This document shows, piece after piece, positions 3,631-19,324 of a DNA stretch of 64,000 bases (position 1 is its first letter; each line of letters begins with the position of its first letter). A model generated the notes under the pieces. It had not been told where the DNA came from. It saw nothing but the letters and a program-made list of their open reading frames with translations, and ran no database searches. A program made the position numbers and the translations under genes. Origin of the DNA: Clostridiaceae bacterium (GTDB lineage: Bacteria > Cyanobacteriota > Vampirovibrionia > Gastranaerophilales > Gastranaerophilaceae); NCBI GenBank assembly GCA_022641775.1, contig JALCDS010000004.1:1-64000 (forward strand), written 5' to 3'.

Positions 3631-3795
3631 ATGGACGAAATAATGACATTTTTCAAAGGCATATTTTCTACAGATTCATCAATGAAAGTAGGTTTATCCC
3701 AATTCAAAGAAGGTGCAGAAATACAAGCCCCTACCCACAACAAAAAAGAACGTAAAAAAGAAACTAAACTCTCCGATTTGATGAGAGGAATCTAG
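3631..3795 (+). CDS. Small 54-residue protein, unknown
   Basis: A short ORF starting MDEIMTFFKGIF and ending KLSDLMRGI, with a basic middle (NKKERKKETK). It is preceded by a good promoter and an AAGGA site; the context AGGACgATATAATGGACGA is almost the same as that before fixC at 9041. It is convergent with nrdG, and its TAG stop overlaps the nrdG stop in the shared bases CTAG. No family is recognised. The promoter and ribosome-binding site argue that it is real. Confidence 0.6.
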   Translation: MDEIMTFFKGIFSTDSSMKVGLSQFKEGAEIQAPTHNKKERKKETKLSDLMRGI

Positions 3796-4478
3796 CCCCT
3801 GACAAAAACATTTTTTATATATTTTTGAAGGATTTGTTTTATGCAACTGAATTCCTCGTCAGAATACGTATGCATATTAACAAACGATTTGTCATACGTT
3901 TTTGTCGGCAAAAAGCGTTGCAAATAGTAAGTATTGGCATCTTTTATAAGTTGCCCGATTTTTTCAAAATCCGCAATTTCTAGTTGTTCCTTCACAACGG
4001 TCGTTCTAAATTCATAACCAATTTTAGATTGCAAAATCAAGTTGATACTCTCGTGTATTTTTTTTGTATCAATATCAGAATTCGTTATAACCCTATATTT
4101 TTCAATCGGAGCTTTTATATCCATTGCGACATAATCAAGCAGATTATTTTTCAAAAGTTGTTCTAACATAATAGGATTAGTTCCGTTTGTATCAAGTTTT
4201 ACCAAGAATTTTAAATCTTTAATTTTTTTTATAAATTCAGGCAAATCTTTTTGTAGCGTAGGTTCCCCACCCGTAATTACAACTCCGTCAAGTTTCCCTA
4301 TTCTTGTTTGCAAAAACTCAAACAAAACCTCCTCAGAAATTGAAGAGGTTTCATTTGAAAAAAGCTCCGGATTATGACAGTACCCGCATTTGAAATTACA
4401 ACCTTTTGTAAAAACAATAGCACTGATTTTTTTAGGATAATCTAAAAGGGACGTCTTTTGTAATCCGCCTATTTGCAT
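3792..4478 (-). CDS. nrdG: Anaerobic ribonucleotide reductase activating protein
   Basis: A 228-residue radical SAM enzyme that uses a [4Fe-4S] cluster and S-adenosylmethionine to install the glycyl radical on NrdD. The cluster motif is GCNFKCGYCHN with Cys27, Cys31 and Cys34. The GGEPT motif follows (VVITGGEPTL). Its start overlaps the end of nrdD by 10 nt, so the two are translationally coupled and share the B12-responsive leader upstream of nrdD. It is longer than the E. coli protein (about 154 residues), in line with the longer NrdG form found in many anaerobes. Confidence 0.93.
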   Translation of the reverse strand: MQIGGLQKTSLLDYPKKISAIVFTKGCNFKCGYCHNPELFSNETSSISEEVLFEFLQTRIGKLDGVVITGGEPTLQKDLPEFIKKIKDLKFLVKLDTNGTNPIMLEQLLKNNLLDYVAMDIKAPIEKYRVITNSDIDTKKIHESINLILQSKIGYEFRTTVVKEQLEIADFEKIGQLIKDANTYYLQRFLPTKTYDKSFVNMHTYSDEEFSCIKQILQKYIKNVFVRG

Positions 4479-6322
4479 AAGTCAAAAGTTTTCCTTTCGG
4501 TGAATTCAACTTTTTTACCCTTATTCCACTGTGAAACAGGTCTGATATAGCCAACAACTCTTGAATATACTTCACAATCTTTGCCACATTTAGGACATTT
4601 AAAATGTTCACCTGCAACGTAACCATGCTCAGGGCATGTACTGAATGTCGGTGAAAAAGTAAAATACGGTAATTTATAGTTATTACAAATCTTTTTAACA
4701 AGATTTTTCATAGTATCAAGATCGTAGATTCTTTCACCTGCAAAAATGTGGACAACAGTTCCACCTGTATATTTTGTTTGTAAATCGTCTTGATGGTCAA
4801 GCACTTCAAAAATATCATCTGTATAATCAACAGGTAATTGTGTTGAATTTGTAAAATACGTATATTTTTTATTCTTATCCATTTTCGCAAGTCGATATGA
4901 TGTACCTTCACCGGGAGTAGCTTCCAAGTTATAATTATTTCCTGTTTCTTTTTGAAAATCGATGATTTTTGCTCTCATAAAGTCCATAACTTCAAGTGCA
5001 AATTGTTTGCCACGGAAACTACCGATATTATCACCTAAAAAGTTTATACAAGCTTCGTTCATTCCGATAAGTCCGATTGTGGAGAAATGATTTTTCCAAT
5101 ACACCCCAAATCTTGATTTGATATCTCTCAAATAGAATTTTGTATATGGGTATAAGTCTTGTTCTGTATATTTTTCGAGTAGTTTACGTTTAATTTCCAA
5201 ACTTTCTTTAGCAATTTCCATTTTTTCGGACAAAGCTTCAAAAAATTCGGCTTTTGTTTGTGCTCTATCTGCAATTTTCGGCAAATTGATTGTAACAACT
5301 CCAACAGAACCCGTCAGTGGATTTGAGCCAAACAACCCTCCGCCACGATACTCAAGTTCGCGGTTATCAATTCTAAGCCTGCAACACATGCTTCTGGCAT
5401 CCTCCGGTGACATATCAGAATTTATAAAGTTTGAAAAGTATGGGATACCGTATTTTGCAGTCATCTCCCAAAGCCCTTCAATATTTTTATTATCCCAATC
5501 AAAATCTTTTGTAATATTGTATGTTGGGATAGGGAAAGTGAACACTCTGCCAGAATTATCACCTTCCATCATAACTTCGAAAAATGCTTTGTTAATGATA
5601 TCAAGCTCATTTTGGAATTCACCGTAAGTTGCATCTTGAACGTCCCCGCCAATTATTACACCTAAATCTTTGTAATAGCTTGGAACAGTCAAGTCCATTG
5701 TGATATTTGTGAATGGAGTCTGAAAACCTACACGCGTCGGTACATTCATATTAAACACAAATTCTTGAAGGGCCTGTTTAACTTGCTTGAAATCCAATTT
5801 ATCATATCTGATAAACGGGGCAAGAAGCGTATCGAAGTTTGAAAAAGCTTGGGCTCCTGCAGCTTCACCCTGCATTGTGTACATGAAATTAACAATTTGT
5901 CCTAAAGCTGAACGAAAATGTTTTGCAGGTGCCGATTCAATTTTTCCTTTAACACCTTTAAATCCTTCCATCAAAAGGTCTTTCAAATCCCAACCGACAC
6001 AATACACAGATATAATATTCAAATCGTGGATATGAATATCACCGTTTACATGGGCATTTTTGATATTTACAGGGTAAATTTTGTTCAACCAGTAATTTTT
6101 ACTGATTTCTGATGCTATGTAATTATTCAACCCTTGAATTGAATAAGACATGTTTGAATTTTCATTAACCTTCCAATCAAGTTTTTTCAAATAATTATCA
6201 ACCAAATTGATATTTGCTTGAACACCAGAATCTTCAGGTTTTGTACCGTTAATTACCGACAACGGTAAAGTCATGCCAATTTTTGAAAGTTCTTCTTCTT
6301 TTTTTGTTAAAATACTATCCAT
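4469..6322 (-). CDS. nrdD: Anaerobic (class III) ribonucleoside-triphosphate reductase
   Basis: A 617-residue glycyl-radical enzyme that makes deoxyribonucleotides without oxygen and without B12. The C-terminus carries the radical site RVVGYIRP (Gly591) after a zinc-binding group Cys563, Cys576, Cys579 and Cys583. The HIHD motif (NGDIHIHDLN) is also typical. ATG at 6322 is chosen because AGGAG lies 7 nt upstream (6334-6330); the frame is open to 6367 but that part is the structured leader. It is the first gene of the nrdDG operon. Expression is predicted to be controlled by a cobalamin riboswitch in the leader. Confidence 0.96.
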   Translation of the reverse strand: MDSILTKKEEELSKIGMTLPLSVINGTKPEDSGVQANINLVDNYLKKLDWKVNENSNMSYSIQGLNNYIASEISKNYWLNKIYPVNIKNAHVNGDIHIHDLNIISVYCVGWDLKDLLMEGFKGVKGKIESAPAKHFRSALGQIVNFMYTMQGEAAGAQAFSNFDTLLAPFIRYDKLDFKQVKQALQEFVFNMNVPTRVGFQTPFTNITMDLTVPSYYKDLGVIIGGDVQDATYGEFQNELDIINKAFFEVMMEGDNSGRVFTFPIPTYNITKDFDWDNKNIEGLWEMTAKYGIPYFSNFINSDMSPEDARSMCCRLRIDNRELEYRGGGLFGSNPLTGSVGVVTINLPKIADRAQTKAEFFEALSEKMEIAKESLEIKRKLLEKYTEQDLYPYTKFYLRDIKSRFGVYWKNHFSTIGLIGMNEACINFLGDNIGSFRGKQFALEVMDFMRAKIIDFQKETGNNYNLEATPGEGTSYRLAKMDKNKKYTYFTNSTQLPVDYTDDIFEVLDHQDDLQTKYTGGTVVHIFAGERIYDLDTMKNLVKKICNNYKLPYFTFSPTFSTCPEHGYVAGEHFKCPKCGKDCEVYSRVVGYIRPVSQWNKGKKVEFTERKTFDLCK

Positions 6323-6329
6323 AAAAAAT

Positions 6330-6427
6330 CTCCTAGTCTCGTAAGTACTACCAACTAAATTAAGCATTCCGACTTTAACGGCTGCGGACCAGTGGGTGAT
6401 TTTCGCACCTCTTTCCTTAAATTAGTT
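6330..6427 (-). ncRNA. Putative class-II-type cobalamin riboswitch in the nrdDG leader
   Basis: Seen in sequence: a closing stem pairs 6427-6416 with 6364-6353 (11 of 12 pairs). Inside it lie GGAAA, a hairpin GGTG/CACC with loop CGAAAAT (6409-6395), then TCCG/CGGA (6388-6368) around CAGCCGTTAAAGT, followed by AATGC. Downstream a hairpin TAGT/ACTA (6350-6334) carries the loop ACTTACGAG, and its 3' arm runs directly into the AGGAG ribosome-binding site (6334-6330). From memory, this order, including the ACGAG loop and the GGAAA and AATGC elements, matches short class-II cobalamin riboswitches. Translational control is inferred. Confidence 0.8.
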
Positions 6428-6432
6428 CTATT

Positions 6433-6461
6433 ATTATAATTCTTATTTAAAATAAAATCAA
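6433..6461 (-). promoter_or_regulatory. Promoter of the riboswitch-nrdDG transcript
   Basis: Read on the minus strand: TTGATT at 6461-6456, a 17-bp spacer, TATAAT at 6438-6433. Transcription would start at about 6426, just where the first aptamer stem begins. Confidence 0.8.
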
Positions 6462-6483
6462 GTATGAAACATGGATTGAGATT

Positions 6484-7038
6484 TTAAACCTTTGGAATAT
6501 TGTGATATTTAAAGGTATTGTTTAGGTATTGAACATTCTTTGTTTCGTAAACTTTAAAATTTATCCTTTTCCCATTCCGCAAATACATTGAAACTTTCAT
6601 TCTTACAGCTGTAGGAAACTTAGCAAACACAATTATTAATGGATTGAAGCCGGTTGTATATGTTGCAATATCAGGATAATTGTACCTTTGATAGTTTATA
6701 CTAATATAATTTTCACAGATAACAACCTTGTCAGCACTAAAAAGCCTGAATGCAGCAGATGCCAATTCCTTTGTCAAAATCAAAATACAAAAGAGAGCTG
6801 CATACCCACACATAGAGCCTGAAAATAAAACCGAAAACTTCAATGCTATACACACAAAAGCCAACGCTATTAAAAACAAACAAGAAAACAGCTCTATACG
6901 ATAGACTTTGTTAAAATCAACTTCTTGCTTTACAAGATTTGGATTAAATTCAGTCCCCTTTTGCGGAGCATCACTTTGTTCCTCATACATTTTTGAAGAA
7001 TCAAAAGTTTTTACTCTTATTTGTTTATTTTCATCCAT
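6484..7038 (-). CDS. Two-TM membrane protein, unknown
   Basis: A 184-residue protein with a hydrophilic N-terminus, two close hydrophobic helices at about residues 48-68 and 72-90, and a cytoplasmic C-terminal beta-rich part (YISINYQRYNYPDIATYT) that resembles a small bacterial PH-like domain. Its ATG at 7038 follows the stop of the HD-GYP gene with no gap, so the two are cotranscribed and probably coupled. I do not recognise a named family. A membrane adaptor for the upstream signalling protein is a guess from context only. Confidence 0.6.
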   Translation of the reverse strand: MDENKQIRVKTFDSSKMYEEQSDAPQKGTEFNPNLVKQEVDFNKVYRIELFSCLFLIALAFVCIALKFSVLFSGSMCGYAALFCILILTKELASAAFRLFSADKVVICENYISINYQRYNYPDIATYTTGFNPLIIVFAKFPTAVRMKVSMYLRNGKRINFKVYETKNVQYLNNTFKYHNIPKV

Positions 7039-19227: not shown

Positions 19228-19324
19228 TAGGGTAGCTCCTGTTTTTTTAATAATATAAACCGAAAATAAAATTTTTGTTACCCTTTTTGTCAATTTTTTT
19301 ACATGTGTTTACAAAATTTTAGAC

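What the first reader, a model, noticed from the sequence alone, without database searches (positions are those of the whole stretch)
6320..6461. Compact cobalamin riboswitch likely controls class III ribonucleotide reductase nrdDG
The 100-nt leader can be folded by eye into a short aptamer. A 12-position closing stem (11 pairs) holds GGAAA, a GGTG/CACC hairpin, a TCCG/CGGA stem and AATGC. A downstream hairpin with an ACGAG loop has a 3' arm that touches the AGGAG ribosome-binding site. The order of elements matches class-II cobalamin riboswitches as I recall them. NrdD needs no B12, so shutting it off when B12 is present makes sense if a B12-dependent class II enzyme (NrdJ) exists. B12 control of B12-independent reductases is known for Streptomyces nrdABS; in this lineage and gene it may be new.
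Basis: partly seen in the sequence, partly recalled or inferred. Interest (0 to 1): 0.8.

Follow-up and report, generated by a model that had tools for sequence, protein, structure and literature searches.

The report
Vitamin B12 switch on nrdD gene
In a gut bacterium of the non-photosynthetic cyanobacterial group Gastranaerophilales, a small RNA sensor for vitamin B12 very probably shuts off a DNA-precursor enzyme that does not need B12 when B12 is available; this is a known kind of control in a lineage where we found no report of it.

Summary
Window 6354-6432 (minus) scores 47.5 bits against Rfam AdoCbl-II (RF01689; cut-off 36.5), the only Rfam family over its cut-off in 64 kb. It lies 31 nt ahead of nrdD, followed by nrdG2. 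It is a compact class-II cobalamin riboswitch.

Relatives show the likely mechanism. The five bases of loop L5 (GUCCG) can pair with a downstream loop (CG-A-GAC) around a one-base bulge, and that hairpin's 3' arm overlaps the Shine-Dalgarno. The loop pairing is kept in 72 of 78 distinct leaders of the family (4.7 in shuffles). B12 binding should stop translation of nrdD.

Across 107 nrdD-bearing genomes of the family, the switch goes with nrdJ, the B12-dependent reductase gene: 56 have both, 41 neither, 5 only the switch, 5 only nrdJ. The window's own assembly (93.7% complete) is one of the five switch-only exceptions. It lacks nrdJ but keeps two corrinoid adenosyltransferase genes, which 97 of 98 nrdJ genomes and only 7 of 48 others have. 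An assembly gap is likelier than loss.

B12 elements on nrdDG are in print for delta-proteobacteria, Propionibacterium acnes and Chlorobium. Lineage and detail are new; the kind is not. Ligand binding is untested.

The parts
6433..6461 (-). sigma-70-like promoter TTGATT-17-TATAAT; transcript would start at about the first base of the aptamer's closing stem
   Evidence: 10 of 12 matches; 2 promoter-like sites found, 1.3 +- 1.3 in shuffles, so position is the argument
6354..6432 (-). class-II cobalamin riboswitch aptamer (Rfam AdoCbl-II)
   Evidence: 47.5 bits, gathering 36.5, E 2.3e-8
6385..6389 (-). loop L5, GUCCG, aptamer side of the kissing loop
   Evidence: co-varies with the downstream loop in relatives
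6332..6345 (-). expression-platform hairpin P13 (CUUA-CGAGAC-UAGG); loop 6341-6336 is complementary to L5, leaving A6339 as a bulge; 3' arm overlaps the Shine-Dalgarno
6330..6334 (-). Shine-Dalgarno AGGAG of nrdD
   Evidence: sequence
4469..6322 (-). nrdD, class III (anaerobic) ribonucleoside-triphosphate reductase, no ATP-cone domain found; start chosen behind the Shine-Dalgarno
   Evidence: TIGR02487 5.6e-174; PF13597 only
3792..4478 (-). nrdG2, radical-SAM activase of NrdD, overlaps the end of nrdD
   Evidence: TIGR02495 5.4e-67

Best explanation
It is a translational OFF riboswitch of the class-II cobalamin type that represses nrdDG when a corrinoid is present, so that the cell uses the B12-dependent reductase NrdJ instead. 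Shown by sequence: aptamer, kissing-loop complementarity, a hairpin whose 3' arm overlaps the Shine-Dalgarno, the genes, and the co-occurrence with nrdJ in relatives. Inferred: that the aptamer binds a corrinoid, that binding stabilises the L5-L13 contact and thus the P13 hairpin, that translation of nrdD then stops, and that the window's organism carries nrdJ in the part missing from its assembly.
For: Rfam match above the curated cut-off. With a model built from 29 of the family's own aptamers, the switch is found on the same strand ahead of nrdD in 66 of 80 related loci and in 64 of 121 nrdD 5' ends of the family (the window is one of the 121, and one of the 64 is a weak 19.5-bit hit). L5 (its last five bases where it has six) is Watson-Crick complementary, with a 0-3 nt bulge, to its own downstream sequence in 72 of 78 distinct leaders (54 nrdD, 24 CPHG), against 4.7 +- 1.9 with shuffled downstream sequence and 83 of 624 when L5 is swapped for another class's. 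Pair 39-107 of alignment A5 changes on both sides in 15 of 52 rows, and pair 40-106 in one; covariation score 0.105 against 0.033 +- 0.008, reached by 0 of 500 shuffles. A 3-5 bp hairpin overlapping the Shine-Dalgarno scores 5 or more in 39 of 46 distinct leaders, against 21.8 +- 3.2 in shuffles. Switch on nrdD versus nrdJ, per genome: 56 both, 41 neither, 5 switch only, 5 nrdJ only; Fisher p 1.9e-18. By genus: 25 both, 9 neither, 3 switch only, p 1.8e-6; by genus majority 22 both, 10 neither, 3 switch only, 2 nrdJ only, p 4.4e-5. Corrinoid adenosyltransferase is present in 5 of 5 switch-only genomes, G000 included, and absent from all 41 'neither' genomes.
Against: No nrdJ, and no other reductase of that fold, in the window's own assembly; if that is real, repressing the only reductase would make no sense. 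The same assembly also lacks the CPHG gene, found in both genus mates. Five nrdJ genomes have nrdD without a detectable switch; G012 has switch and nrdJ but no adenosyltransferase. Pair 40-106 is unpaired in 17 of 52 rows of A5, and two of the five measures do not exceed shuffles (pairs with a change on both sides: 224 of 500 shuffles reach it; further pair types: 141 of 500). The Shine-Dalgarno hairpin is common in shuffles too (about 22 of 46). Genomes are related, so p-values overstate independence. No ligand data. Minimum-energy folding does not single the leader out.
Confidence: 0.9

Rival explanations
1. The species has really lost nrdJ (and the CPHG gene), and the riboswitch is a relic, or B12 merely tunes nrdD rather than shutting it off.
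For: nrdJ and the CPHG gene are both absent from an assembly 93.67% complete; G072 (99% complete) and G143 (97%) show the same switch-without-nrdJ state.
Against: The window's leader is intact: 47.5 bits with Rfam, and 79 bits, second only to 79.7, in the survey with the family model (both top sequences were used to build that model). In nrdJ genomes without a detectable switch on nrdD, the leader holds at most what look by eye like decayed remnants (a weak case). Two adenosyltransferase genes are retained, while 41 of 42 genomes without that gene also lack nrdJ.
Confidence: 0.15
2. The element regulates by transcription termination, not translation.
For: Cobalamin riboswitches of both types are known (PMC10653944 passages).
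Against: No terminator-like site on the minus strand in 6300-6560; the hairpin's 3' arm overlaps the Shine-Dalgarno itself, in most relatives too.
Confidence: 0.07
3. The match is a chance or decayed RNA without regulatory role.
For: Folding energy is not better than shuffles.
Against: E 2.3e-8 over the whole window, full model length; conserved position and co-varying kissing loop in dozens of relatives.
Confidence: 0.02

Closest known systems
B12 elements on nrdDG in Desulfovibrio vulgaris and Desulfuromonas (PMC545781) and on nrdDG and nrdAB in Propionibacterium acnes (PMC3848588)
   Same: Cobalamin riboswitch (predicted or annotated) ahead of a B12-independent reductase in genomes that also encode NrdJ; the same proposed logic.
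   Different: Unrelated lineages; the passages read name B12 elements or cobalamin riboswitches without mention of the compact class II; here the coupling to nrdJ is counted over 107 genomes.
env8 hydroxocobalamin riboswitch (translational; PMC10907184, PMC10653944; class II as recalled)
   Same: Kissing loop L5-L13 with a bulge, occlusion of the ribosome-binding site on ligand binding.
   Different: The review describes the RBS in the P13 loop of env8; here it overlaps the 3' arm of P13. Ligand unknown here.
Rfam RF01689 AdoCbl-II ('AdoCbl-variant', listed as Marine in PMC2864571)
   Same: Structure and sequence match above the cut-off.
   Different: Gut lineage and nrdD target. Six relatives' nrdD leaders carry inserts of about 40-65 nt in L6; two of these score below the Rfam cut-off (28.8 and 27.6 bits) and four are not matched at E 0.01.
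Streptomyces nrdABS riboswitch
   Same: B12 repression of a B12-independent reductase.
   Different: Class Ia genes, other lineage.

Membership tests
Rfam AdoCbl-II (RF01689) | score at or above the curated gathering score | tested here: met
   47.5 vs 36.5 bits
class-II cobalamin riboswitch | core without the P8-P12 extension of class I | tested here: met
   79-nt aptamer, 7-nt loop on P6; definition from PMC11260477 passages
class-II cobalamin riboswitch | L5-L13 kissing loop between aptamer and expression platform | tested here: met
   complementarity in 72 of 78 distinct leaders, window included; the contact itself is not shown
class-II cobalamin riboswitch | binds a cobalamin | not testable with these tools
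   needs in-line probing or ITC
subclass IIb (AdoCbl-selective) | UCU motif in J6/3 opposite GGAA in J3/4 | tested here: not met
   GGAAA present, but J6/3 reads AAUG (6368-6365), no UCU; definition from PMC11260477 passages, which also describe an exception without UCU
subclass IIa (Me/HyCbl-preferring) | ligand preference | not testable with these tools
   no binding data
B12-repressed alternative reductase system | B12-independent reductase genes downstream | tested here: met
   NrdD and NrdG2 by NCBIfam
B12-repressed alternative reductase system | B12-dependent reductase NrdJ in the same genome | tested here: inconclusive
   absent from this 93.67% complete assembly but present in both genus mates and in 56 of 61 family genomes with the switch on nrdD

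The most novel reading that the evidence does not exclude
The leader lacks the UCU signature of AdoCbl-selective class IIb, so it may sense methyl- or hydroxocobalamin rather than the adenosylcobalamin that NrdJ uses. The same aptamer family also sits ahead of an undescribed ~230-aa 'CPHG' protein family. Gastranaerophilales would then have a small B12-repressed regulon (nrdDG plus an unknown, perhaps B12-related, function) read out through corrinoid supply rather than through the coenzyme form.
Probability: 0.2. Interest if true: 0.5.

Novelty: new member of a known kind. Interest (0 to 1): 0.35.

Why it matters
It predicts the reductase choice, and so part of the B12 economy, of a gut lineage known here mainly from metagenome assemblies. 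It also gives a natural series of 78 distinct leaders with compensatory kissing-loop changes that could be used to test how a bulged loop-loop contact makes regulation ligand-dependent. The principle itself is known.

Tried and rejected
Folding energy as evidence: rejected, the leader folds no better than shuffles. Consensus promoter scan: kept as weak, 2 sites found and 1.3 expected in shuffles. Finding an empty nrdJ site by synteny: tried with flanks of nrdJ from both genus mates; gene order differs too much between G027 and G062 to decide between loss and assembly gap. MetH as the B12 user: 6 of 8 genomes gave partial hits below the cut-off (7.3e-22 in G000, with stops inside), so no MetH was identified. 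Identity of the CPHG protein: no Pfam family above its cut-off, no relatives in viral contigs; left open, no structure predicted.

Rows dropped or borderline. Two short hits of the home-made model in the window (17.0 and 16.1 bits at 19306 and 48365) and one in L220 (16.1 bits at 865-973) were treated as chance. Five nrdD fragments that lack their start were left out. The weak 19.5-bit hit L234 was counted and removed (55 both, 41 neither, 5 switch only, 6 nrdJ only; p 1.7e-17). For NrdJ only matches over the curated cut-off were counted (98 genomes; 106 have a match at E 0.001); G083, counted as lacking it, has sub-cut-off pieces. One search used 46 distinct leaders of 64; two more were skipped because no Shine-Dalgarno or no L5 was recognised. 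One search left out one leader without a recognisable L5 (G007).

Full report
What is there. On the minus strand, a promoter-like site (6461-6433) is followed by a 79-nt aptamer (6432-6354), a short hairpin (6345-6332), the Shine-Dalgarno AGGAG (6334-6330) and the start codon of nrdD (6322-6320); nrdG2 overlaps the end of nrdD. Rfam's AdoCbl-II model fits the aptamer from first to last position at 47.5 bits (cut-off 36.5), and it is the only family that reaches its cut-off in 64 kb. A permissive search of the leader gave five other hits, all at E 3.8 or worse. NrdD and NrdG2 are identified by curated models (TIGR02487, TIGR02495).

Where it comes from. Of 80 related NrdD loci (up to 87% identity), 48 bear the name Gastranaerophilales or Melainabacteria; most of the rest are unnamed 'bacterium' records and a few carry other names. 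It has 1.71 Mb in 41 contigs and is 93.67% complete.

Relatives. Of 146 genomes of the family, 133 have an RF01689 match and 113 have one above the cut-off. I looked at what follows the 30 loci given for (window included): 24 lead into an undescribed protein with a CPHG...CPxC motif, 5 into nrdD (4 by BLAST, L097 from the place of nrdD) and 1 into another gene. I then fetched the 5' region of 120 nrdD genes from the same genomes and searched them, with the window, using a model built from 29 of the family's aptamers (the window's aptamer is one of the 29, so its score with this model is no independent evidence). 64 of 121 carry the switch on the strand of nrdD, one of them weakly. Among the 80 loci, 66 carry it on the strand of nrdD; at least one of the others (L062) begins inside the gene and could not show it.

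Mechanism. In alignment A5 (52 nrdD leaders) the P6 pairs never vary, so they say nothing. The informative pairs are between L5 and the loop of the downstream hairpin: pair 39-107 is U-A in 36 rows, A-U in 14, G-U in 1 and unpaired in 1; pair 40-106 is C-G in 34, U-A in 1 and unpaired in 17. The covariation score (0.105) is reached by none of 500 shuffles, but the number of pairs with two-sided change (2) is reached by 224 of 500, the number of pairs being small. The unpaired rows are explained by a bulge whose place differs. Allowing a 0-3 nt bulge after the second or third pair, the five L5 bases (the last five where the loop has six) find Watson-Crick partners in 72 of 78 distinct leaders (54 nrdD and 24 CPHG leaders), with shuffles at 4.7 +- 1.9 and foreign L5 loops at 83 of 624; the six misses are listed there. 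In the window this is GUCCG (6389-6385) with CG-A-GAC (6341-6336), A6339 bulged. Of 39 leaders with the same L5, the bulged base after CG is A in 31, C in 4 and U in 3, and one bulges one base later. [quoted passage not shown] The hairpin's 3' arm overlaps the Shine-Dalgarno: 39 of 46 distinct leaders have such a hairpin with score 5 or more, shuffles 21.8 +- 3.2, at most 30 in 200 runs. No terminator-like site lies on this strand in 6300-6560. Hence a translational OFF switch is the best reading.

The B12-dependent partner. NrdJ (TIGR02504 over its cut-off) occurs in 98 of 146 genomes. Among the 107 genomes with nrdD: 56 have switch and nrdJ, 41 neither, 5 switch only (G000, G023, G039, G072, G143), 5 nrdJ only; Fisher p 1.9e-18. 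Without the weak hit the counts, in the same order, are 55/41/5/6, and among genomes at least 90% complete 48/36/3/5. By genus, 25 both, 9 neither, 3 switch only; by majority within the genus, 22 both, 10 neither, 3 switch only, 2 nrdJ only. The upstream regions of the five nrdJ-only genomes contain no aptamer that the model accepts; by eye some hold decayed remnants (inference). The window's own genome has no NrdJ and no other reductase of that fold, although both genus mates have NrdJ. Corrinoid adenosyltransferase (PF02572) is present in 97 of 98 nrdJ genomes (not in G012) and in 7 of the 48 others. These 7 are the five switch-only genomes plus G055 and G083. G000 has two matches; the one on contig 22 was checked as an intact open frame. 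The simplest reading is that nrdJ is in the unassembled part; true loss cannot be excluded, and synteny could not decide it.

Comparison with the known. Control of nrdDG by B12 elements with NrdJ in the same genome was proposed in 2004 for delta-proteobacteria (PMC545781, passages); a cobalamin riboswitch is reported as annotated ahead of nrdDG in Propionibacterium acnes (PMC3848588, passages) and found ahead of nrdD in a Chlorobium (PMC8620254, passages). RF01689 appears as 'AdoCbl-variant, Marine' in PMC2864571 (passages). The listing (3 papers) holds one general cyanobacteria review with the words Melainabacteria and riboswitch (PMC8066212, listing only); otherwise nothing on this lineage and riboswitches was seen there or (15 listed of 59). 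That library lacks most subscription papers. J6/3 here reads AAUG and lacks the UCU given as a mark of class IIb (PMC11260477, passages), so the preferred cobalamin form is open.

Verdict. A real, ordinary-in-kind cobalamin riboswitch on a class III reductase operon, in a lineage where it seems unreported, with a mechanism well supported by comparison and no binding data.

Noticed in passing
L082-L088, L090-L096, L100-L103, L105-L110 (downstream of the aptamer); L254, L255: An undescribed protein of about 215-275 aa as called, with an N-terminal CPHG...CPxC motif, follows the AdoCbl-II switch in 24 of 30 loci; no Pfam family above cut-off for the one scanned. Absent from the window's assembly, present in both genus mates.
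   Followed up: partly
L104: An AdoCbl-II switch precedes a third, apparently exported, open frame of at least 469 aa, of unknown function.
   Followed up: no
L135, L151, L156, L183, L239, L240: nrdD leaders with an insert of about 40-65 nt in the loop of P6; two score below the Rfam cut-off and four are not matched at E 0.01. Both genus mates of the window have this form, on another nrdD subtype. L165 and L182 have inserts in the loop of P4 instead.
   Followed up: partly
window 4469-6322 (-) versus L098: The window's NrdD shows no N-terminal ATP-cone (PF03477), which a relative under the same switch has, so allosteric control by dATP may be lost (inference).
   Followed up: partly
L234 (G007); L198, L199, L201 (G112, G138, G034): Apparently decayed aptamers ahead of nrdD in nrdJ genomes (19.5 bits in L234; others by eye): perhaps recent loss of B12 control.
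   Followed up: no
family genomes, e.g. G109, G102, G018: Two nrdD subtypes (profile ends 580 and 581; about 1.7 and 1.8 kb) coexist in some genomes. Of 51 unswitched nrdD 5' ends in genomes without nrdJ, 38 are of the second subtype.
   Followed up: no
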